Assembly: GCA_018003655.1 (NCBI GenBank)
Contig: JAGNDY010000012.1
Location: forward strand, 1-35,003
Length of the DNA: 35,003 bases
From: Candidatus Nanopelagicales bacterium
Lineage (GTDB): Bacteria; Actinomycetota; Actinomycetes; S36-B12; UBA10799
Direction of reading: 5' to 3'
Shown here: one piece after another, positions 3,083 to 12,512 of the stretch
Layout: each line of letters starts with the position of its first letter
Position numbering within the stretch: position 1 is the stretch's first letter
Made by a program: the position numbers and the translations under genes
The notes under the pieces: model-generated
Database searches by the model: none
What the model was told of the DNA's origin: nothing
Seen by the model: only the letters and a program-made list of their open reading frames with translations

Positions 3083-4450
3083 ATGTCGCAACGCCGGGTA
3101 GCCATGGTCACCTTGGGCTGTGCGCGCAACGACGTCGACTCCGATGAGCTCGCCGGCCGTCTACTTGCGGACGGCTGGACCGTCGTTGACGATCCCGACG
3201 ACGCCGACGCGGTGTTGGTCAATACCTGCGGGTTCGTTGAGGCGGCCAAGAAGGATTCGATCGACACGGTTCTCGGCCTGCAGGACGGTTCCCGAAGCGT
3301 CGTAGCCGTTGGTTGCCTGGCAGAGCGATACGGCGACGAGCTGGCGCAAGCACTGCCGGAGGCCAACGCGGTCTTGGGCTTCGACGCGTACCCGGAGATC
3401 TCAGCGCAGTTGGCTGCCGTGGTGGCCGGTGAGCAACTGCCCTCGCACACACCGCGAGACCGACGCAAACTCCTACCGATCTCGCCGGTGGATCGCCAGG
3501 ATTCGCAGGCGCAGGTACCGGGCCATTCACCGCAACGGATCCGACTCGAGACCGGACCGATCGCGTCGCTGAAGATCGCCTCGGGCTGTGACCGAAGGTG
3601 CAGCTTCTGCGCGATCCCATCGTTTCGGGGATCATTCGTATCGCGACGTTCGGGCGACGTCCTCACCGAAGCGCGCGCGCTGGTATCCGACGGCGTGCGT
3701 GAGTTGAACCTGGTGAGCGAGAACTCCACCTCCTACGGCAAAGACCTCGGTGATCTGCGACTGCTTGAGACGTTGTTGCCCGAGCTCGCTGGTCTGCACC
3801 CGGATCTGCGCATCCGACTCGCCTATCTGCAACCGGCCGAAATGCGGCCGGGCTTGGTGGACGTCATGACGTCAACGACGGGAGTTGCACGGTACTTCGA
3901 CCTATCGTTCCAGCACGCGAGCCCGCAGGTGCTGCGCAGCATGAAGCGCTTTGGTGGGATCGATGATTTTCTGGCTCTGGTCGCACAGATCCGAGTCAGT
4001 GCTCCCGACGCGGGGCTACGGACCAATGTGATCGTTGGATTCCCTGGGGAAACCGAAGCCGATCTGCTGATCTTGGAGGACTTCCTGGAGAAGGCGTCGC
4101 TGGATGCGATAGGCGTCTTCGGATACTCCAACGAAGACGGAACCACCGCCATGAAACTGCCCGATCACCACGATCAGGCGACGGTGGACCAACGAGTTGC
4201 CCGGATCTCGGAACTTGTCGAGAACCTGATGGACGAGCGAGCCCACGAGCGGGTTGGCTCAGTTGTCTCGGTATTGGTTGAGCGCTTCGATGCGCAGGGT
4301 CAAGCGGTCGGCCGAGCCGAGCACCAGGGGCCAGAGGACGGCGATGTCACCATCGTTTCGCCGAGTCGCTCGCGCATCGGAGAGGTCATTCATGCCAGGG
4401 TTTCCTCTGCAGAGGGGGTAGACCTGTTCGCGACGGAGGTAGACGAGTGA
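3083..4450 (+). CDS. rimO: Ribosomal protein S12 methylthiotransferase RimO
   Basis: A 455-aa radical-SAM enzyme that adds a methylthio group to the conserved aspartate of ribosomal protein S12. The N-terminal domain has its three cluster cysteines at C13 (VTLGCARNDVDS), C49 (VNTCGF) and C78 (AVGCLAERYG). The VTLGCxxNxVDS opening separates RimO from MiaB. The radical-SAM CxxxCxxC motif is C169, C173 and C176 (SGCDRRCSFCAIPSFRG). A TRAM-like beta domain ends the protein from about residue 390. The stop overlaps the pgsA start (GTGA), so the two are translationally coupled. Second methylthiotransferase of the window after miaB. Confidence 0.96.
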   Translation: MSQRRVAMVTLGCARNDVDSDELAGRLLADGWTVVDDPDDADAVLVNTCGFVEAAKKDSIDTVLGLQDGSRSVVAVGCLAERYGDELAQALPEANAVLGFDAYPEISAQLAAVVAGEQLPSHTPRDRRKLLPISPVDRQDSQAQVPGHSPQRIRLETGPIASLKIASGCDRRCSFCAIPSFRGSFVSRRSGDVLTEARALVSDGVRELNLVSENSTSYGKDLGDLRLLETLLPELAGLHPDLRIRLAYLQPAEMRPGLVDVMTSTTGVARYFDLSFQHASPQVLRSMKRFGGIDDFLALVAQIRVSAPDAGLRTNVIVGFPGETEADLLILEDFLEKASLDAIGVFGYSNEDGTTAMKLPDHHDQATVDQRVARISELVENLMDERAHERVGSVVSVLVERFDAQGQAVGRAEHQGPEDGDVTIVSPSRSRIGEVIHARVSSAEGVDLFATEVDE

Positions 4451-5136
4451 CCACTGGTGATCCTCGTCCCGTCCCAACCAAGAAACCCGTCCGTGAGCTA
4501 CTAGCTCCAAAACCCGATCCGGTAAGCCACCCGACGTCAACGTCGCGGTTGGCAAACGTCCCCAATGCGCTCACGGCATTGCGGCTACTGCTGGTCATTC
4601 CCTTCTCGTGGCTGTTGTTCACCGGTGGTGACAGCAATGGTTCGCGAACGGCGGCAGCGATCATCTTCGTCATTGCTTCGGTCACCGACTACCTGGACGG
4701 GGCGCTCGCTCGCAAGTACGACTTGGTCACCAACTTTGGCAAGATTGCCGACCCGATAGCCGACAAGGCCCTGACAGGTGTTGCTCTTATCGGCCTCAGT
4801 TATCTGCACGACCTGCCGTGGTGGGTGACGATCGTCATCCTGTTCCGGGAGATAGCCGTCACAGCACTGCGTTTCTGGGTCATTCGCCACGGAGTCATAG
4901 CCGCGAGCCACGGCGGAAAGGCCAAGACCGCCACGCTGATCTTGGCGATCCTCATGTATCTGTTACCGCTGACCGGTTTCCTGGCAGACCTTCGGGTCTG
5001 GGTGTTGGGACTGGCGGTCATCCTGTCGGTGGTGACCGGGATCGACTACCTGGTGCGGGCGATCTTGCTACGGCAGAACTCCGAGCGGACGAAGATGAAG
5101 CGGGCGACTGCGAGTCGACAACGAGAAAGGGCCTGA
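4447..5136 (+). CDS. pgsA: CDP-diacylglycerol--glycerol-3-phosphate 3-phosphatidyltransferase (PgsA-type)
   Basis: A 229-aa integral membrane enzyme that makes phosphatidylglycerol phosphate from CDP-diacylglycerol and glycerol-3-phosphate. The full CDP-alcohol phosphotransferase signature DG-x2-AR-x8-G-x3-D-x3-D is present (DGALAR, then G, D and D within KIADPIAD), at about residues 85-107. Several hydrophobic helices follow, and the C-terminus is basic (KMKRATASRQRERA). The GTG start at 4447 is supported by GGAGG at 4435-4439 with 7-nt spacing and by the 4-nt overlap with rimO. Residues 1-35 are a polar, Pro/Thr-rich extension. Substrate assignment follows the family and the ftsK-rimO neighbourhood; another CDP-alcohol transferase specificity cannot be excluded. 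Confidence 0.9.
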   Translation: MTTGDPRPVPTKKPVRELLAPKPDPVSHPTSTSRLANVPNALTALRLLLVIPFSWLLFTGGDSNGSRTAAAIIFVIASVTDYLDGALARKYDLVTNFGKIADPIADKALTGVALIGLSYLHDLPWWVTIVILFREIAVTALRFWVIRHGVIAASHGGKAKTATLILAILMYLLPLTGFLADLRVWVLGLAVILSVVTGIDYLVRAILLRQNSERTKMKRATASRQRERA

Positions 5137-5139
5137 ACT

Positions 5140-7602
5140 GTGGCTGGTTTGCGCTCACGAGTCTCCCGCGTCCGGCGAAAAAAGCTCGGCGAGGACACCA
5201 GGGACGCTCAACAACAGCGCACGAAACTGAAAAACTCTGGTCTTGTGGACTTGGAGTGGTTCACCGCATTGACCAGCAGGTCGTTTATTTCGGTTGAAGC
5301 CGCGATCGATTTCTACCTCGACCAGCCGCAGCCGCGGCCCGCGTTGAGTCCGTGGATGCAGACAGCGCCCGAGACGTCGAAGCTTGGCAAGGGCGGGGAT
5401 CCCTTGCTGAACTTCCTGGCAAAGTCCGGCCGATTCGCGCATTTCCCCTTCCTCGACAGGCGCCAGTTGGCCGTGGCCGAGGGAGTAAAGCGGCCGTGGT
5501 TGGCGGCTATCAGGGACATCGGTTCCGATGACCTGATGCCGGTCCATGGCGACTGGGTTGGGCCCGTCCCAACCTACGGTCAATGGCGCGAAGCGATGAT
5601 TGCGGCAGCTCAGCGCGTTGCGGCTCAGCGAGGCCCGCAGGTGCCATCGCAACAACCAGACCGATCGTCCCCGCGCACACTCGGCGAGGTTTCACCGCAG
5701 ACTTCACCTGTGCCGGACGGCGACGAATGGGAGTCTGAGCTCCGAGCGAGGCACGAGGTGGATTGGCAAGCCGTCGCCGACGTGCAGGCGAATCGAGTCA
5801 ACGGTCGAGTCTCGGTCGTGATCCCTACGTTCAACGACTGGAAGATGACCGTAGCGGCAGTTAGGTCGGTGCTGAGGTTCTCAGCGGGGACCGATGTCGA
5901 GGTAGTCGTCGTTGACAACGGCAGCGAACCAAACTGCAGCTTGGTTCTCGCCGGTGCGTTGTCGTTCGATCCACGGATCAAGCTAATCCGCCAGCCGATC
6001 AACCTGAACTTCGCGCTCGGCTCGAACGTCGGGTTTGCCGAGTCATCCGGCCAGACAGTGGTCTTCCTCAACAACGACACCGATGTTCGGGCAGGTTGGC
6101 TCGACGCGTTGGTCGACGGGCTAGCCGACTCAGATGTGCGCGGGGTGCAGCCGTTGCTGTTGTATCCCGACGAGACGATTCAGTCCGCTGGCACGATTCT
6201 GCCCGATTGCGGCGGATTGCCCAGCCACTTCCTCGTCGGCTTCCCGGCCGATGATGCCTACGCCCTCGAGACCATCGAGTGCTCAGTCGTCACGGCCGCG
6301 GCACTTGCTATGCGCGCGAGCGAGGTGACCGCGTTGCGCGGCTTTGACACGGCGTATATCAACGGTTGGGAGGACGTCGATCTCTGCTTGCGGGCGCTGG
6401 AACGGTGGGGTGGGCACTTTGAGGTGACCTCGTCGTCAGTCGTCGTGCACCACGAGAGCAAGACACCCGGTAGGGGCAAGCATATTGCTGCGAACCGGAC
6501 GCTCTTCACCCAACGGTGGGCCGGCCGGATGCCACCGGCGGACGCAGTTGCGCACTGGCGCAGTGCTGGTTTGGATGTGGCTCGCTGGGATCCTGGGGCG
6601 AGCGTCTCGCCGGGCGCGGGACGGGCGCCGGCACCAGTTCTTGTGCGGCCGGAATCTGTGGTTCTCGATGGGCGGGCCGCAGGGCTGCCCTCCCTGCGCT
6701 GGGCGATCAAAATTGCTGCTTGGCCAGGTCCACGGGGGGAGCATTGGGGCGACGTCCATTTTGCCGCCGATCTGGCTCGGTCGCTGCGGCGCCTCGGCCA
6801 GGAGGTCGTCGTGGATCCGCGGACCAGCACTCAGCGACCCACCAGCGGCCTTGATGACGTGGTCCTCGTCCTGCGTGGGCTCGACGAGGTCGACCCACAG
6901 CCAGGGCGGGTCAACATGATGTGGGTGATCAGCCATCCGGACATGGTCACGCCCACAGAGTTGGCCCGATTCGATATCTGCTTCGCTGCGGGAGCACCGT
7001 GGGCGCAGCAGATGACCGACGAGGGCGACATCCCTGTTCGCACATTGCTGCAGGCGACTGACCCCGAACGGTTCCATCCCGGGGTGGCTGAGCCGGATAC
7101 CGGTGAGGCTGTGCTCTTCGTCGGGGGATCGCGCCGACAGATGCGTCCGATCGTGCGGGACTCGATCGCGGCTCACGTTGATCTGGCTGTGTACGGCGGA
7201 GGATGGCGGGGAGAGTACGAACTGCCTACCGGAGTTCTACGCGCCGAGTACCTGCCCAATCAGGTCGTTCCAGCGGCCTATCGTTCGGCCGGCGTCGTTC
7301 TGTCTGATCATTGGGCCGACATGGCCGAGGCCGGGTTTCTTTCCAACCGGCTCTTCGACGCCGTCGGCGCGGGCGCGCGGGTCATCTCCGATGACGTTCC
7401 CGGGATTGAGGACGTGTTCGGCGATGCCGTAGCGATCTACCGAACCGTTGACGATCTGGAGCGCCTCTGCTCGCCGAAAGGTCGGTCAACGCTACCTAGT
7501 GAGGAGCAGCTGCAGGTCGCGGCGCAGACCGTACGGCGAGAGCACTCGTTCGATGCCAGGGCGTGGGAGTTGCTCAACGCCGCAGTACTGGCACGCGGGT
7601 AG
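5140..7602 (+). CDS. Two-domain glycosyltransferase: N-terminal extension, GT2 domain, GT1/GT4-like C-terminal domain
   Basis: 820 aa. Residues 1-200 are a basic leader followed by a segment (AIDFYLDQ ... LSPWM ... GGDPLLNFLAKSG) of the kind found ahead of some polysaccharide glycosyltransferases. A GT2 (GT-A) fold starts near 223 with RVSVVIPTFNDW. It has VVVVDNGSE, the metal-binding stretch FLNNDTDVRAGW near 308-319, and GWEDVDLCLRA near 407-418, resembling rhamnosyltransferase-like GT2 proteins. A second domain from about 530 to 815 (VMWVISHPDMV, LFVGGSRRQMRPIV, VVLSDHWADMAEAGFLSNRLFDAVGAGARVI shortened here to its ends) resembles GT-B enzymes with a C-terminal nucleotide-sugar half. The GTG start lies 3 nt after the pgsA stop behind GAGAAAGG, so it may be read from the pgsA transcript. 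Probably adds two sugars to a cell-surface glycan; donor and acceptor unknown. Confidence 0.85.
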   Translation: MAGLRSRVSRVRRKKLGEDTRDAQQQRTKLKNSGLVDLEWFTALTSRSFISVEAAIDFYLDQPQPRPALSPWMQTAPETSKLGKGGDPLLNFLAKSGRFAHFPFLDRRQLAVAEGVKRPWLAAIRDIGSDDLMPVHGDWVGPVPTYGQWREAMIAAAQRVAAQRGPQVPSQQPDRSSPRTLGEVSPQTSPVPDGDEWESELRARHEVDWQAVADVQANRVNGRVSVVIPTFNDWKMTVAAVRSVLRFSAGTDVEVVVVDNGSEPNCSLVLAGALSFDPRIKLIRQPINLNFALGSNVGFAESSGQTVVFLNNDTDVRAGWLDALVDGLADSDVRGVQPLLLYPDETIQSAGTILPDCGGLPSHFLVGFPADDAYALETIECSVVTAAALAMRASEVTALRGFDTAYINGWEDVDLCLRALERWGGHFEVTSSSVVVHHESKTPGRGKHIAANRTLFTQRWAGRMPPADAVAHWRSAGLDVARWDPGASVSPGAGRAPAPVLVRPESVVLDGRAAGLPSLRWAIKIAAWPGPRGEHWGDVHFAADLARSLRRLGQEVVVDPRTSTQRPTSGLDDVVLVLRGLDEVDPQPGRVNMMWVISHPDMVTPTELARFDICFAAGAPWAQQMTDEGDIPVRTLLQATDPERFHPGVAEPDTGEAVLFVGGSRRQMRPIVRDSIAAHVDLAVYGGGWRGEYELPTGVLRAEYLPNQVVPAAYRSAGVVLSDHWADMAEAGFLSNRLFDAVGAGARVISDDVPGIEDVFGDAVAIYRTVDDLERLCSPKGRSTLPSEEQLQVAAQTVRREHSFDARAWELLNAAVLARG

Positions 7603-7668
7603 TGCCGTGGTGGCCGTTTGTTTGTTGCCGCGAACACACTGCGCTGGGCGACAGGTGCGTCGCGCGGT

Positions 7669-8841
7669 TCAGAAGCGATTGCGGTCTCGTTGACCGCTAG
7701 CGGTCAACTTGGATGGTAAGAACGAGGCAGCACGCCGACTCAGCCTGTATGCCCTGCTCCGCTTGATCTTGCGGAGTTCCCTCCTGGCCTGCTTGCGAGC
7801 TTGGACCGCCCGCTTTCTGGCGCGGACCGCGCGCCGGCGACGATCCTGCAATTCCTGGACCGTTTCGTTGCGTTCGCGGTCGATGGCTGCGAATTGAAGT
7901 GCCAGGGGCCGCAACTTCTCAACTTCAACTGCGGTAATCGCGTGGTCGTTCGTCGGGTCAAGGATCGGGAAGAGGAGGTCGGGGCGAATCGCGTTGTCAC
8001 CCAACAGCGTTAACGCTTCCGGTATCGACGTCTCTAGTCGGTACCTGTCCAACGGGATTCCGGCTTCGATCTCGGAGGCAGTCGGATGCCGCAGCACATA
8101 TGAGTGCAGCAACCGCTCCTGCTGGTAGCTGCGATAATCCATCATTCCGTGATGGTTCGGGCTGGGCTGCAGGTCAGGATTGGCCGCATACGCCAGGCCA
8201 GCATTGATGACTTTGCGCTCCAGTTGCTCGTAGGAACGCCACGGCAGGTGGAGGACCTCGATGGAGTCCGAGGTGACCTGGACCGAACGCTCTGCCTGGA
8301 CAAAGTGATTTCCTTGCGCGACCGTCACATCTGCACGACCACGATGGAAGGTGTCGCTGGTCGGGTGCGCAAACAAGCCCACGGTGAGTAGTTGCTCAAT
8401 CGACCGTTGGTCTCGCCACACTAGGCGCCGGACGCCGTTTCCCGAGTAAGCCGGTGGGCCGACCAGGTTAACGACTGGCACGGTGACGGCGTCCACCTCG
8501 CTGGGAAGTTCGGCTAACGCATCAACAAGTCGGTTTGAACGGTTGGTTGCGAACCAAAACTCGTCAGCATCGGCGTTCAAGACCCAGTCGGCATTGTGTT
8601 CGGCGAACGCGCGCCGGGCCATCTTGGTAACAACTTCGTGCTGTTGTTTGCGGTGTATCGGGTCATGGTGGAGTTCGAGAATTCCGGCTCCTTGGTAGGC
8701 ACTCAGGATCTCGGTGGTGCCATCAACTGAGGCATTGTCAGTTGCGATGATCAGGTCGACGCCCTGGGCCAGGTGGTGTTCAATCATTGCCGCAATGATG
8801 TCCGCCTCATCGCGCACCATCATGGTCATGACGACCTTCAT
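7669..8841 (-). CDS. Glycosyltransferase family 2 (Glyco_tranf_2_4-like) with basic coiled-coil tail
   Basis: 390 aa, encoded opposite to its neighbours. The opening MKVVMTMMVRDEADII and the nucleotide-binding segment ATDNASVDGT are typical of this GT2 subgroup. A DxD-type metal site, NADADEFW, lies at residues 89-96. Residues ~310-390 are highly charged and heptad-like (many Arg/Lys/Glu), ending in RSRAYRLSRRAASFLPSK, a variant of the basic tail seen in nearby proteins. Role: transfer of a sugar to a surface glycan or lipid carrier; specificity not inferable. The start codon has no Shine-Dalgarno sequence; instead a hairpin ends 2 nt upstream of it. The gene converges with the 820-aa glycosyltransferase gene, 66 nt apart, and diverges from the methyltransferase gene. 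Confidence 0.82.
   Translation of the reverse strand: MKVVMTMMVRDEADIIAAMIEHHLAQGVDLIIATDNASVDGTTEILSAYQGAGILELHHDPIHRKQQHEVVTKMARRAFAEHNADWVLNADADEFWFATNRSNRLVDALAELPSEVDAVTVPVVNLVGPPAYSGNGVRRLVWRDQRSIEQLLTVGLFAHPTSDTFHRGRADVTVAQGNHFVQAERSVQVTSDSIEVLHLPWRSYEQLERKVINAGLAYAANPDLQPSPNHHGMMDYRSYQQERLLHSYVLRHPTASEIEAGIPLDRYRLETSIPEALTLLGDNAIRPDLLFPILDPTNDHAITAVEVEKLRPLALQFAAIDRERNETVQELQDRRRRAVRARKRAVQARKQARRELRKIKRSRAYRLSRRAASFLPSKLTASGQRDRNRF
7689..7708. repeat. Perfect 20-bp palindrome near the 3' end of the GT2 gene
   Basis: GTTGACCGCT is followed directly by its reverse complement, giving a gapless 20-bp palindrome inside the last codons of the minus-strand glycosyltransferase gene. It could be a protein-binding site or part of a transcript-end hairpin. 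No T-run is adjacent in either direction. Confidence 0.6.
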
Positions 8842-8843
8842 CG

Positions 8844-8878
8844 CGGGAACCCGTTCTGTGGATGCGCGACGGTTCCCG
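8844..8878 (-). promoter_or_regulatory. Hairpin in front of the GT2 start codon
   Basis: CGGGAACC and GGTTCCCG form an 8-bp perfect inverted repeat with a 19-nt loop. In the mRNA of the minus-strand GT2 gene the stem ends 2 nt before the ATG and fills the place of a ribosome binding site. It may limit translation or mark a promoter-region operator. The rest of the 250-nt divergent region (8842-9091) shows no further clear element apart from the Shine-Dalgarno of the methyltransferase gene. Confidence 0.35.
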
Positions 8879-9091
8879 GGTGGAACCCGCTGCTGCAGTC
8901 ACATCCAGAATACCCACCGGCCGTCTTGGTCGCCGGGAGCGCAGGTGAGTAGAGCCGTGATCAGTTGAACCCAGACCGGCACAGCCAGAGGGCAATTGCG
9001 GACAGTCGCTTAGCATGTCCTGATCTACTTTGTTTGACTTTGCTTGGGCCGGGAGAGACCGATCTTCCAGCCGAATAGGGAAGGTTCCTGC

Positions 9092-10105
9092 ATGGATCGC
9101 GTCGACAAAGTCTTTGCTTTTGCAGATCGATCCGGTCGTGGTTTGGAGTTTGGGCCGTCGTATCGGCCGCTGGCACCCAAGTCGGCCGGCTTCGATGTTG
9201 TGACTGTTGATCACACCACCCGCGAGGAGTTGGTCAAGAAATACCGAGCCTACGAGCGAACGCAGGAGCAGCTTGACGCGATCGAGGAGGTGGACCTGAT
9301 TTGGGATGGCGGGAGCTTTGCGGACCTAGTCGACGAGAAATTCGACTTCATCATCGCCTCGCATTTCATTGAACACACGGTCGACATGATCGGCTTCCTG
9401 CAGGACTGCGAGCGCATGCTGAAGCCAGGTGGGGTTCTGACGTTGGTGGTGCCAGACAAGCGGTTCTGCTTCGACATGTTCCAACCATTGACCACGGTGG
9501 GTGATGTGATTGACGGGCACCTCAGTGACCTGCAATACCACCCCGCCGGGGCCGTTGTGGACCACTTCGCGTACACCAGCACTCGTGGCGGCACGGGCGC
9601 ATGGGGTCCCAAATCACGAGCACCCATCAAACTCAATGAGACGGACCTCGCACCATCTACCTACAAAGTCGAGCGTGGAAGCGAGCAAGCTGAATACATC
9701 GACGTCCACCGGTGGAAGTTCACGCCCTCGTCGTTCACACTGTTAATGCAAGACCTGCGGGATTTGGGGTACCTGCAGATGGCAGAGGCTGGTGGCTTCG
9801 GCACCACCGGTTGCGAGTTCTTCGTGACCCTCACGACAGATGCCAGGAAAATTGAACGGCGCGACCGATTCGAGCTCCTACTCAAGACCGAGTTTGAGCT
9901 TCGCAGTGTGCGAATCCCCGAACTCGACTCACTGGATATCAACCCGAACCCACAGACCACACGGATCGCTCGCCTACAGAAGAAGGTCGCCCAACTAAAG
10001 GAGGAGAATCGCGAACTGAAGCGGTCGACCTCGTGGCGGGTGACTAAACCAATACGCAAGGCGTCCAAGGCCGCGAAGTCCGCGCGCAGACGCGTCTCGG
10101 GCTGA
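9092..10105 (+). CDS. SAM-dependent methyltransferase with C-terminal coiled-coil/SWRVTKP tail
   Basis: 337 aa. The Rossmann-type methyltransferase core has a motif I variant GLEFGPSYRP at residues 17-26, an acidic VVTVDH at 36-41, FDFIIASHFIEHTVD near 84-98 and the post-motif LKPGGVLTLVVPDKR at 110-124, as in class I (Methyltransf_11-like) enzymes. From about 290 a heptad-rich coil (LQKKVAQLKEENRELKR) leads to STSWRVTKPIRKA and a lysine/arginine-rich end. The context of glycosyltransferases suggests it caps or decorates a surface sugar, which is inference. The ATG at 9092 is preferred over an in-frame TTG at 9044 because GGGAAGG (9078-9084) stands 7 nt in front of it. Confidence 0.82.
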   Translation: MDRVDKVFAFADRSGRGLEFGPSYRPLAPKSAGFDVVTVDHTTREELVKKYRAYERTQEQLDAIEEVDLIWDGGSFADLVDEKFDFIIASHFIEHTVDMIGFLQDCERMLKPGGVLTLVVPDKRFCFDMFQPLTTVGDVIDGHLSDLQYHPAGAVVDHFAYTSTRGGTGAWGPKSRAPIKLNETDLAPSTYKVERGSEQAEYIDVHRWKFTPSSFTLLMQDLRDLGYLQMAEAGGFGTTGCEFFVTLTTDARKIERRDRFELLLKTEFELRSVRIPELDSLDINPNPQTTRIARLQKKVAQLKEENRELKRSTSWRVTKPIRKASKAAKSARRRVSG

Positions 10106-10141
10106 AGGCGATCGCAGGGTCACAGCGCCGCGCCGAACCGC

Positions 10142-10158
10142 AGCCAACTCCGTTGGCT
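10142..10158. terminator. Hairpin between convergent genes, possible bidirectional terminator
   Basis: AGCCAAC-TCC-GTTGGCT is a perfect 7-bp stem with a 3-nt loop. It lies in the 65-nt space between the ends of the methyltransferase gene and the convergent coiled-coil gene. Only a short T-rich stretch follows, so termination is likely but unproven. Confidence 0.45.
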
Positions 10159-10170
10159 CGTGCCTTTGAG

Positions 10171-10623
10171 TTAGTCCCCTCGTGCTTTTCGGAGGGGCTT
10201 GGTAATCCGCCAACTACGGCGTCGTTTCATCGACCCCAGCTCAGTCGCGATCCGCTTGCGAGATTCTTGAGCACGTTCGAGCTTTTCCTTCAGCGCGGTA
10301 TTGTTCGCGTGGGCATTTGCCAGCCGATTGGATGTCTGTCGTAGCTCCCGCCTGGTCAGCATCAGCTCCCGATTCTGGGAACGAATCATCTCGGCCTGCG
10401 CCGCCACTACATCGGAAAGGCCCTCCCAGGTCTTCGTCGGGTCAGGTGTCTCGTAGGTCAGGTTGCTGCTGCTGGCCTGTCGCTTTGCCAGATCCGCGCG
10501 CTTTGGCGTCAATCCCGGTTGGCCCCCGTCGGGTAATGCCAGGCGATAGGTCAACTCCATCAACTTGTATCGGGCGAACCCTTCGAAGAAGTCGGAATCG
10601 GTAATCGCGTCTGAACTAGTCAC
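10171..10623 (-). CDS. Small coiled-coil protein with SWRITKPLRKA tail, function unknown
   Basis: 150 aa with no recognised enzyme domain. An N-terminal half (MTSSDAITDSDFFEGFARYK ...) leads to a long heptad region at about 75-130 (AQAEMIRSQNRELMLTRREL ...). It ends in RRRSWRITKPLRKARGD, nearly the same tail as the methyltransferase. The GTG start at 10623 overlaps the end of the GT61-like gene by 8 nt and has AAGGAG just upstream, so the two are coupled. It could be a scaffold or partner that gathers tailed glycan enzymes; that is a guess from shared tails and position. Its last codons can form a CCCCTC/GAGGGG hairpin that might aid termination. Confidence 0.72.
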   Translation of the reverse strand: MTSSDAITDSDFFEGFARYKLMELTYRLALPDGGQPGLTPKRADLAKRQASSSNLTYETPDPTKTWEGLSDVVAAQAEMIRSQNRELMLTRRELRQTSNRLANAHANNTALKEKLERAQESRKRIATELGSMKRRRSWRITKPLRKARGD

Positions 10624-11785
10624 TTGATTCTCCTTGTTCCTCAGTCGGAGCGGATTGTTGCTTGTCCGTCAAGTCTCGCAATTGACTCATGGCCGAGCCG
10701 AGAACCGCAGGGTCGAGGTGCCAGCTGCCGATCCACGCTGCTCGAGCGGGCTGTCCATCGGTCCCCCGCTGCTTGTCATCGGGGTCACCTTCAACGATGT
10801 TCAGCTCGGCTCTGCCCATCCCGGCGCAAAGAGGGTCCAAGGGGTTGGGATTCAGTCGACTGCGCAACACGGTCATCTGCGTTCCCGGTGCGGCGAACAT
10901 CACCAGGTGCATGGCGCTGCCGACTTCGCCGGAAATGGCGCGCGCACTATGGATGATCTGAATCTGTTCTGCTAGCGGCATGGTCTCGGGTGAGACGATT
11001 GAGTAGCCCGCCGCCGCCATAGTCGCGTCGACATCCGCTCGGTTGACGAGGTGACGGGGTGTGTTCGCTTCGTCTTGGTGCACTTGCTTGCGGGACAGAT
11101 GTATCAGTTCGCCTCGTGACCGGCTGCCCTGGTTCAGAGCGTTCGCGCGCATGTTGGCGAAGACGTTGATCCGATCTGCATCGAAGCTGGTTCCCTGCCT
11201 TGCGGTCGTCGCCAGGTAGAGCTCGCGGACTAGGACGTTTTCCCTTTCCGGAATCCGCACGATCGGCCGACCGATGATCCCTGCCATTTCGAGAAGGCCC
11301 TCGAGGGCGGCCGACATGGTGGAACTGGCAACGAACGGCACGTCCCGATCGAGGACTGCGTGCAATAGCGCTGCCCTTGGCAATACGTCCAGTAGACAGT
11401 GACCGAAAACCCAATCGCCGGCTTGGCCGATCCACGCGCCGGAATCCAACGTGTCGGCTGGATCATCTGCGAACGTCGGCCAAAGAAAGGCGGCGTGGGC
11501 CTCCACGTCAACAGCGGCATGCCAAGCCGAGCCGGTGGGCCAAACCATGCCCGGCAGCATTGCCCCAGAACGACTGACACATCGTCCATCAACGACGCGG
11601 AAAGCCAGACCAGGAACAGGTGTCGGAGCCGCCGGAACCTCTGCGCTACGCCAAATCCCGTTGCCGCGGTCGTAGCGGCGAGCGATTGGCGGCCCGACAA
11701 CTGAGGTGGTTGCTGGCGCGTCGTGGATGAGCGTCACACCAGCGGGTAGTGATTGATCGACTGCCCAGTTCTCCAGACTCCACAT
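10616..11785 (-). CDS. GT61-like (DUF563) glycosyltransferase; 5' end uncertain, possible frameshift
   Basis: From the ATG at 11785 the product is 389 aa, beginning MWSLENWAVDQSLPAGVTLI. Family features of DUF563/GT61 enzymes are visible: GQAGDWVFGHCLLDVLPRA in the middle, a HLSRKQVHQDEANTPRHLVN segment, and near the end EQIQIIHSARAISGEVGSAMH plus MFAAPGTQMTVL. The frame stays open upstream to 12277 but there it only shadows the epimerase gene and is rich in Cys, Trp and Ser. A plausible N-terminus (VSTKLAAKGRHIPHVNFVQP ...) exists in another frame between about 11909 and 11800. The intact gene may therefore start near 11909, with one extra base near 11790-11820. No good Shine-Dalgarno precedes 11785. 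It lies downstream of the epimerase gene on the same strand. Confidence 0.72.
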   Translation of the reverse strand: MWSLENWAVDQSLPAGVTLIHDAPATTSVVGPPIARRYDRGNGIWRSAEVPAAPTPVPGLAFRVVDGRCVSRSGAMLPGMVWPTGSAWHAAVDVEAHAAFLWPTFADDPADTLDSGAWIGQAGDWVFGHCLLDVLPRAALLHAVLDRDVPFVASSTMSAALEGLLEMAGIIGRPIVRIPERENVLVRELYLATTARQGTSFDADRINVFANMRANALNQGSRSRGELIHLSRKQVHQDEANTPRHLVNRADVDATMAAAGYSIVSPETMPLAEQIQIIHSARAISGEVGSAMHLVMFAAPGTQMTVLRSRLNPNPLDPLCAGMGRAELNIVEGDPDDKQRGTDGQPARAAWIGSWHLDPAVLGSAMSQLRDLTDKQQSAPTEEQGESSD

Positions 11786-11915
11786 TGATGAAGCCCCGAC
11801 CGGTGTGATCACGTGATGACAATACAAACGTGTTGGTCGTGTTCGGCGGCTGCACGAAATTGACATGCGGAATATGGCGCCCTTTGGCCGCCAGCTTGGT
11901 TGACACCAAGTCGGG

Positions 11916-12512
11916 TCACTGCAGCCCCGAGCGGTACTCCGCGCAGGCTTCGTAGGTTGGGAGCAGTCCGCCAGACGCGGCCTCGCTAAGGCTCGGCGCT
12001 TGAGCATCCTTGGGTGACAACAGCGGCTCCACGTCGGACGGCCAGTCAATGCCGATCTCTGGATCGAGCGGATTGATGCCGTGTTCCCGGCTGGGGGCGT
12101 ATGGCGTGCTACAGAGGTAGAGAACGGTTGATTGATCTTCCAGCGCGAGGAATACATGCCCAAGGCCCTCGTTGAGGTAGAGGGCGCAGCGATTGTCAGG
12201 ATCGAGTCGAACTGTCTCCCACTGACCAAACGTGGGCGAGCCAACCCGAACGTCCACGGCAACATCGAGCACGGCACCAGTCACGCAGGTGACGTATTTG
12301 GCCTGACCGGGTGGGACGTCAGCAAAGTGAATGCCGCGCATCGAGCCGCGCGTCGACACCGAGCAGTTCGCCTGCGCTAGATGTAGGCCATGGCCGACGG
12401 TGGGTGCAAACACGTCCTCCTTGAACCATTCCAGGAAGTATCCGCGCGAGTCCTCATGTCTCTTGGGTTGCATGAGGTAAGCACCCTCGATCGACAGGGG
12501 TGTCAGTTCCAT
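11916..12512 (-). CDS. rfbC: dTDP-4-dehydrorhamnose 3,5-epimerase family protein (RmlC-like)
   Basis: 198 aa, the usual length of the family. RmlC-type cupin signatures are clear: RHEDSRGYFLEWFKEDVF, the catalytic-histidine motif GSMRGIHFADVPPGQAKYV, AVDVRVGSPTFGQWETV, and YAPSREHGINPLDPEIGIDWP near the C-terminus. The enzyme epimerises dTDP-4-keto-6-deoxyglucose at C3 and C5 on the way to dTDP-L-rhamnose. Related actinobacterial enzymes serve other deoxysugars, so the final sugar is open. Other rhamnose genes (rmlA, rmlB, rmlD) are not in the window. The ATG at 12512 is chosen over one at 12557 because AAGGAG stands about 6 nt upstream and the protein then starts MELTPLSIEGAYLM. Confidence 0.85.
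   Translation of the reverse strand: MELTPLSIEGAYLMQPKRHEDSRGYFLEWFKEDVFAPTVGHGLHLAQANCSVSTRGSMRGIHFADVPPGQAKYVTCVTGAVLDVAVDVRVGSPTFGQWETVRLDPDNRCALYLNEGLGHVFLALEDQSTVLYLCSTPYAPSREHGINPLDPEIGIDWPSDVEPLLSPKDAQAPSLSEAASGGLLPTYEACAEYRSGLQ

What the first reader, a model, noticed from the sequence alone, without database searches (positions are those of the whole stretch)
7669..10623. Shared coiled-coil plus SWRxTKPxRKA tail on unrelated proteins of the module
The methyltransferase ends in a coil followed by STSWRVTKPIRKA. The 150-aa protein ends in a coil followed by RRSWRITKPLRKA. The GT2 enzyme ends in a charged coil followed by RSRAYRLSRRAA. Enzymes with different folds carrying one tail suggest a common docking or membrane-surface tag, with the small protein as a tail-only scaffold. 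Similar tails occur on glycan enzymes elsewhere, but I know of no assigned function.
Basis: partly seen in the sequence, partly recalled or inferred. Interest (0 to 1): 0.55.

Follow-up and report, generated by a model that had tools for sequence, protein, structure and literature searches.

The report
Coiled-coil membrane tail on glycan enzymes
Two neighbouring proteins of a small sugar-polymer gene island carry the same coiled-coil plus SWRxTxPxR tail, a module found on many bacterial glycan enzymes and also at the membrane end of WbdD, the molecular ruler that sets O-antigen chain length in E. coli.

Summary
The shared tail is real on two of the three proteins. The methyltransferase (9044-10105) and the 150-aa protein (10171-10623) score 44 and 39 bits with a tail profile; a third copy sits on another methyltransferase elsewhere in the genome. 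The GT2 tail (YRLS) is not a member by profile. Of 120 pattern hits in public genomes, 96 are the module: a coil in fixed heptad register, then SxSWRxTxPxR, then a basic amphipathic stretch. It sits on methyltransferases and other enzymes, C-terminally or joined to GT2/GT4 domains, in glycan loci. Methyltransferase orthologues without it show that it is separable. Key link: the E. coli O9 and O8 chain terminators carry the same motif (SRSWRMTKGYR, NSRSWRITQPLR) where the molecular-ruler coil meets the C-terminal region that published work assigns to membrane and polymerase binding. I conclude that the tail is a membrane-proximal base for coiled-coil glycan enzymes (confidence 0.6). The 150-aa protein, whose start overlaps the end of a GT61 gene, may supply it in trans. 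The membrane role is inferred for the window proteins. The window is not a WbdD system: short coil, no WbdD-like C-terminal region, no adjacent transporter.

The parts
9044..10105 (+). methyltransferase (Methyltransf_23 type) with C-terminal coil and SWR tail
   Evidence: ORF, Pfam, tail 44.3 bits
9950..10030 (+). coil of the methyltransferase, core I-L-V-L-(N)-L in the common register
   Evidence: sequence; register
10031..10057 (+). motif SWRVTKPIR
10058..10102 (+). basic end KASKAAKSARRRVSG
10171..10623 (-). 150-aa protein, mostly coil plus SWR tail, no enzyme domain found
   Evidence: ORF, no Pfam family over its cut-off, 38.7 bits, AlphaFold helix 62-147
10216..10440 (-). coil of the 150-aa protein (residues 62-136)
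10189..10215 (-). motif SWRITKPLR
10616..10635 (-). AAGGAG, GTG start of the 150-aa gene and overlapping TAG of the GT61 gene: probable translational coupling
   Evidence: sequence
10616..12277 (-). GT61 glycosyltransferase without a tail, upstream partner gene of the 150-aa protein
   Evidence: Pfam, sequence
7669..8841 (-). GT2 enzyme; its coil plus SRAYRLSRRAA end (7726-7758) is not a confirmed member of the module
   Evidence: Pfam
5140..7602 (+). GT2-GT4 fusion of the same island
   Evidence: Pfam

Best explanation
The tail is a separable membrane-proximal base module of coiled-coil glycan enzymes. The coil runs in fixed heptad register into S-x-S-W-R-x-T-x-P-x-R. There the hydrophobic stripe shifts by one residue and the chain goes on as a basic amphipathic helix, which most likely lies in the inner face of the cytoplasmic membrane with Trp at the interface and Arg on lipid phosphates. 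The coil holds the catalytic head at some distance above the membrane, where the lipid-linked glycan grows, and probably oligomerises the enzyme. In WbdD this is the point where the chain-length ruler meets its membrane- and polymerase-binding end. In the window the methyltransferase carries the base on a short coil. The 150-aa protein, whose start overlaps the end of the GT61 gene, probably supplies a base and coil in trans to GT61 and perhaps to the methyltransferase. Shown: the module, its register, its spread, its modularity and its place in WbdD. Inferred: membrane binding of this very motif, oligomerisation, and the trans role.
For: Register locked to the motif over 95 rows: LIVMF 62% in the core register, 9-14% in four off registers, and the coil was not in the search pattern. 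Tail stripe at +10, +14 (67% against 18%). From the Pro on, more amphipathic than 90% of own shuffles in 47 of 95; mean charge +3.9. Same motif in E. coli O9 WbdD at 594 of 708, E 3.4e-7 with a profile made without it, in the O8 terminator (40.2 bits) and in Klebsiella WbdD (17.4 bits). Published: amphipathic helix puts WbdD at the membrane, WbdD 1-600 expresses well, full length is hard to solubilise (PMC3447403); C-terminal region recruits WbdA (PMC3482155). Enzymes on the N side are largely methyltransferases, GT2/GT4 on the C side, the order of terminator-coil-polymerase proteins (PMC11231755). Tail absent from four orthologues. GT61/150-aa overlap.
Against: No direct evidence that the nine residues bind membrane; in WbdD the literature that I saw places the membrane helix in the C-terminal region without naming this motif, and the motif could be only the end of the coil. 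In WbdD itself P+6 and R+8 are changed (SWRMTKGYR). About half of the rows (48 of 95) are not clearly amphipathic by the shuffle test. In some proteins large GT domains follow the motif, so it is not always an end. The window coil is short, the WbdD-like C-terminal region is missing and no exporter is adjacent. One tail-only ORF lies by a proton pyrophosphatase, not by glycan genes.
Confidence: 0.6

Rival explanations
1. The motif is first of all a protein docking site: it binds a partner glycosyltransferase or exporter, as the WbdD C-terminal region recruits WbdA, and membrane contact is secondary.
For: Strict side-chain conservation (S, W, R, T, P, R) in chains of quite different context exceeds what a simple lipid anchor needs, though the invariant columns were part of the pattern. 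The WbdD C-terminal region recruits WbdA (PMC3482155). Terminators and polymerases sit on its two sides.
Against: No single partner family accompanies it: neighbours are diverse glycan genes, ABC2_membrane in 4 and Wzt_C in 2 of 107 sampled ORFs, and the own genome has no Wzt_C. The C-side is amphipathic and basic.
Confidence: 0.25
2. The tail is only an oligomerisation coil; the SWR motif is a capping or register-setting element of the bundle without membrane or partner role.
For: Textbook heptads in strict register; the WbdD coil makes trimers (PMC3482155).
Against: The conserved part lies beyond the coil, with a shifted stripe and strong positive charge, and in WbdD it borders the membrane- and polymerase-binding region.
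Confidence: 0.11
3. Chance resemblance of two Arg/Lys-rich C-termini.
For: Pattern hits by chance do occur: two of four in the own genome are wrong-frame accidents and 24 of 120 census hits were judged false. Chance may explain the GT2 resemblance.
Against: Two window hits against 0.01 expected; profile E-values 1.8e-12 and 1.7e-10 in the own genome, though both rows are in the profile; register lock in the census.
Confidence: 0.02

Closest known systems
WbdD, chain terminator and molecular ruler of E. coli O9/O9a and O8 (ABC-transporter-dependent O antigen)
   Same: Methyltransferase head, coil, then S-x-S-W-R-x-T motif at the coil's membrane end.
   Different: WbdD has a long ruler coil, a ~110-aa C-terminal region after the motif, and Wzm/Wzt and WbdA beside it; the window methyltransferase has a ~27-residue coil, 15 residues after the motif and no exporter nearby.
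Coiled-coil terminator-polymerase proteins of Klebsiella O12 (WbbB), O7 (ORF6) and O4 (ORF7), as described in PMC11231755
   Same: Modular order terminator - coil - polymerase, like the census proteins with methyltransferase before and GT2/GT4 after the motif.
   Different: Their sequences were not read here, so presence of the motif is untested; the window proteins carry no GT after the motif.
Amphipathic membrane helices of glycosyltransferases and LPS enzymes (LpxB, PimA, LpxK, as reviewed in PMC6286764)
   Same: Amphipathic helix with basic residues, in PimA with a Trp, that associates a glycan or lipid enzyme with the membrane.
   Different: Those belong to the catalytic domains; here the segment is a separable module behind a coil.

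Membership tests
SWR tail module (defined here by profile A4) | Coil in register plus SxSWRxTxPxR, profile score | tested here: met
   Methyltransferase 44.3 bits, 150-aa protein 38.7 bits; both rows are in A4. The 150-aa protein has Arg, not Ser, at -2
SWR tail module (defined here by profile A4) | Same, for the GT2 enzyme | tested here: not met
   2.0 bits, coil part only; matrix -8.7, reached by 192 of 1792 background ORFs
WbdD-type chain terminator and ruler | Terminating enzyme head (methyltransferase or kinase) | tested here: inconclusive
   Methyltransferase by Pfam; that it caps a glycan end is unknown
WbdD-type chain terminator and ruler | Motif S-x-S-W-R-x-T at the membrane end of the coil | tested here: met
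WbdD-type chain terminator and ruler | Long extended coil acting as ruler | tested here: not met
   About 27 residues of coil in the window methyltransferase; the 150-aa protein has a helix of 86 residues but no head
WbdD-type chain terminator and ruler | C-terminal region of about 110 aa after the motif | tested here: not met
   15 and 5 residues follow the motif
WbdD-type chain terminator and ruler | Wzm/Wzt exporter and polymerase beside the gene | tested here: not met
   None in the window (not every small ORF was scanned); one Wzm homologue elsewhere in the genome, no Wzt_C
In-plane amphipathic membrane helix | Basic amphipathic segment | tested here: inconclusive
   47 of 95 rows pass the shuffle test; mean charge +3.9; the window tails were not in that test
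In-plane amphipathic membrane helix | Binds membrane | not testable with these tools
   Needs localisation or liposome experiments

The most novel reading that the evidence does not exclude
SWRxTxPxR is the signature of one general bacterial device, a membrane socket in which glycan enzymes of unrelated folds stand together: their coils assemble, also between different proteins, over the growing lipid-linked chain. Headless tail proteins such as the 150-aa one are trans-acting posts whose coil length sets the working height, so that chain-length rulers of the WbdD kind are one special case of a device used far beyond ABC-transporter O antigens.
Probability: 0.25. Interest if true: 0.78.

Novelty: new variant of a known kind. 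Interest (0 to 1): 0.55.

Why it matters
A tail seen on many anonymous methyltransferases and glycosyltransferases gets a testable role through a protein whose mechanism is known. If right, membrane-organised and perhaps length-controlled glycan assembly could be recognised from a nine-residue motif in many phyla, actinobacteria included. It also singles out a conserved point of WbdD, beyond the end of its solved structures, where ruler meets membrane and polymerase, as worth mutating.

Tried and rejected
Orthologue trail: the GT2 enzyme has one weak match besides itself in 148 genomes of its order; GT61 has one partial match, on the same contig as a methyltransferase orthologue, and that contig shows no tail. 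The 150-aa protein alone found no relative in genome contigs.

A Tyr/Phe variant of the motif as a second tail class, to save the GT2 claim: 5 hits after a coil against 1 for the reversed pattern, and of the 5 only the GT2 itself and one SFRVTAPLR protein look right. Rejected.

PDB searches with the tail find only generic coiled coils. A 31-aa tail peptide found nothing in plasmids. Single-sequence AlphaFold of the methyltransferase was unusable (mean pLDDT 38).

Recurrence of tail-only proteins: eight small complete ORFs by rule. But L071 and L078 overlap another frame that in L071 is an FkbM methyltransferase, so a frameshift is possible, and L086 and L141 have conflicting frames. I rely only on L042, L115, L118 and L151, plus a 145-aa ORF in L065. 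Starts are not certain, and L042 lies beside a proton pyrophosphatase, not beside glycan genes.
Full report
WHAT IS THERE. The window holds a five-gene glycan island, 5140-12277, between housekeeping genes (FtsK, a UPF0004/radical-SAM protein and a CDP-alcohol phosphatidyltransferase on one side; an Lhr-type helicase and RecA on the other). Genes: GT2-GT4 fusion (5140-7602, +), GT2 (7669-8841, -), methyltransferase (9044-10105, +), 150-aa protein (10171-10623, -), GT61 (10616-12277, -). The 150-aa gene starts with GTG inside the end of the GT61 gene (8-nt overlap), behind AAGGAG, so it is probably translated together with GT61. The methyltransferase lies on the other strand, so the two tail-bearing genes are not one operon.

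THE OBSERVATION. A DNA pattern for the nine-residue motif hits twice in the window, against a mean of 0.01 in shuffles. In the own genome it hits four times; the two outside the window are accidents in wrong frames. In 148 genomes of the order (own genome included) it hits 26, and the backwards control hits 5 (counted from its table). Reading the loci, the clear cases outside the own genome (L005, L006, L008, L012, L015, L017, L021, L022, L023, L027, L028, L031) all have a coil before the motif; the rest are mostly chance frames, and L030 has the motif near a C-terminus without a clean coil.

CENSUS. A rule (open frame, few Gly/Pro upstream, Ser/Thr at -2) accepts 94 of 120. By eye I drop L114 and add L117, L118 and L123, which gives 96 of 120. 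Titles of accepted loci include proteobacteria, actinobacteria, Acidobacteria/Holophagae, Bacteroidetes, Opitutaceae, Dehalococcoidia, Melainabacteria and Tissierellia. The pattern favours some codons, so numbers per phylum mean nothing. Of 81 with a complete 3' end, 34 have at most 30 residues after the motif, 24 have 31-140, and 23 have more.

THE MODULE. Profile A4 holds 95 rows: 93 of the 96 (L034, L078 and L123 left out as odd, near-identical to L071, or too short upstream) plus the two window tails. The coil register is locked to the motif: core at -22, -19, -15, -12, -8, -5, filled by LIVMF in 62% of cells, against 9-14% in the four registers that share no core position and 40-41% in the two that share half. 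The coil was not part of the search pattern; the acceptance rule used only Gly/Pro content and position -2. After the motif, hydrophobics continue at +10 and +14 (67% LIVMF against 18% at the other free places), one residue out of the coil's phase. The segment from the Pro on is more amphipathic than 90% of its own shuffles in 47 of 95 census rows, and motif plus the next eight residues carry +3.9 charges on average (census rows only).

BEARERS AND CONTEXT. N-sides of at least 100 aa (78 of 96 scanned): FkbM methyltransferase 19, Methyltransf_11-type 12, Methyltransf_24 6, GT2 7, GT4 5, sulfotransferase 2, and single pyruvyl-transferase, PIG-L and PhyH cases (counts are per family and can overlap). 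C-sides of at least 140 aa (31 scanned): GT2 20, GT4 20. Neighbouring ORFs: 107 of 385 near true hits show GT4 10, epimerases 6, GDP-mannose dehydratase 6, ABC2_membrane 4, Wzt_C 2; 110 of 119 near false hits show none of these among the 25 families listed. The two sets differ in taxonomy, and only part of each family list is printed. Context is glycan synthesis, but an ABC exporter is near only some.

SEPARABILITY. Four methyltransferase orthologues in the order (37-41% identity over the catalytic part) end 7 to 29 residues after the match, without the tail. So the second refuter, part of the catalytic fold, fails too. The own genome has a third tail, on a Methyltransf_24 protein. In 197 genomes of the phylum, drawn with a completeness filter of 90, 10 have a tail at E 1e-4 or better, the own genome among them with the most, three. 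Large genomes had not all candidates scored, so this is a lower bound.

LINK TO WBDD. WbdD came to mind from memory; I fetched E. coli HS (serotype O9 by recall; the record annotates an O9-family Wzm/Wzt) and read its terminator. It has EIEKIHRSRSWRMTKGYRYLG with the motif at 594 of 708. A4, made without it, finds it at E 3.4e-7 among 8504 ORFs. The methyltransferase beside Wzm/Wzt of the O8 family has HNSRSWRITQPLRWLS, the canonical form, 40.2 bits; an O9-family variant 31.5; a Klebsiella protein annotated WbdD 17.4. In that comparison O8 and O9 proteins match only over residues 325-437 and 557-665, that is coil end, motif and what follows (33.6-34.5%). So in a known system too, the segment with the motif is shared between terminators that otherwise differ. 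The ~110 residues after the motif in many census proteins align with the WbdD C-terminus and have no convincing Pfam match. A profile of 15 of them, without WbdD, finds Klebsiella WbdD at 4e-4, O9 types at 5e-4 to 2e-3 and O8 only at 0.056, so this second kinship is likely but not strong.

WHAT PAPERS SAY (passages seen, unless said otherwise). PMC3447403: WbdD has a C-terminal amphipathic helix that puts it at the inner membrane; WbdD 1-600 is expressed at more than 100 mg per litre, full length is difficult to solubilise. The construct end, 600, falls inside the motif (my reading). PMC3482155: the C-terminal region recruits WbdA; the first part of the coil makes trimers. PMC11231755: extended coiled-coil proteins mark terminated glycans, with the terminator at the far end and the polymerase near the membrane, in one or more proteins (passages and first part of the discussion). 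PMC6286764: coil deletions shorten and insertions lengthen the chains. The primary papers (Clarke 2009, Hagelueken 2015, and a third that I recalled as Liston 2015) are not held under the DOIs tried. Solved WbdD chains end at 556 at the latest. Text searches for strings of the motif found no paper on it (one search was swamped by unrelated words, 40 of 473 listed). Within these searches of open-access papers the motif is not described.

MECHANISM. The best reading is a membrane-proximal base: coil above, hinge at S-x-S-W-R, basic amphipathic helix in the membrane face. Shown are the module, register, average amphipathicity, modularity and its place in WbdD. Inferred are membrane binding of this very motif and oligomerisation. 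For the 150-aa protein, AlphaFold from the single sequence gives one helix, 62-147, with block pLDDT above 90 from residue 81; produced together with GT61, it would be a post in trans. That is a proposal. The third tail, on the GT2 enzyme, fails the profile.

MEMBERSHIP. The window methyltransferase works, I think, like the base of WbdD but is not a WbdD: the coil is short, the WbdD-like C-terminal region is missing, and no Wzm/Wzt was found beside it. The genome has a Wzm homologue at the end of contig C8, in a stretch with a LytR-CpsA-Psr gene and a GT2, and no Wzt_C.

Noticed in passing
L187 (G032:C79) 3093-9072: Three consecutive genes of a same-family genome (GT4, GT4, FkbM-GT4) each have a coil followed by a deviating motif (LWRVTSAPR, WWRMTAPGR, WWRATNPGR) before the GT4 domain.
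   Followed up: partly
A3 members, e.g. L088:4846-5190, L147:5184-5516, and the WbdD C-terminus in L152: A ~110-aa region directly after the motif (R-x-P ... RFPxL ... LxPxAxxxYxxL) recurs in many proteins and probably in WbdD, without a convincing Pfam match.
   Followed up: partly
L071:557-1863 and L078:4289-5583: In two near-identical deltaproteobacterial bins the tail frame overlaps a large ORF in another frame (an FkbM methyltransferase in L071): a shared frameshift or a true overlap.
   Followed up: no
L099:1-316: One Melainabacteria ORF carries two coil-plus-SWR units in tandem (SWRLTRPLR and SWRWSLPLR).
   Followed up: no
L042:3502-5952: A 118-aa tail-only ORF starts 4 nt past the end of a proton-pumping pyrophosphatase gene.
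   Followed up: no
G061:C76 (L217, L218): Homologues of the window methyltransferase and, partly, of the GT61 protein lie on one contig of another genome of the order, about 17 kb apart, without any tail.
   Followed up: partly
L153-L155 (G000:C8): The own genome's Wzm homologue lies at a contig end in a stretch with a GT2 and a LytR-CpsA-Psr gene, perhaps a wall-polymer exporter.
   Followed up: partly
window 5140-12277: The glycan genes form an island between a phosphatidyltransferase gene and an Lhr-type helicase/recA region; possible insertion, not tested against relatives.
   Followed up: no
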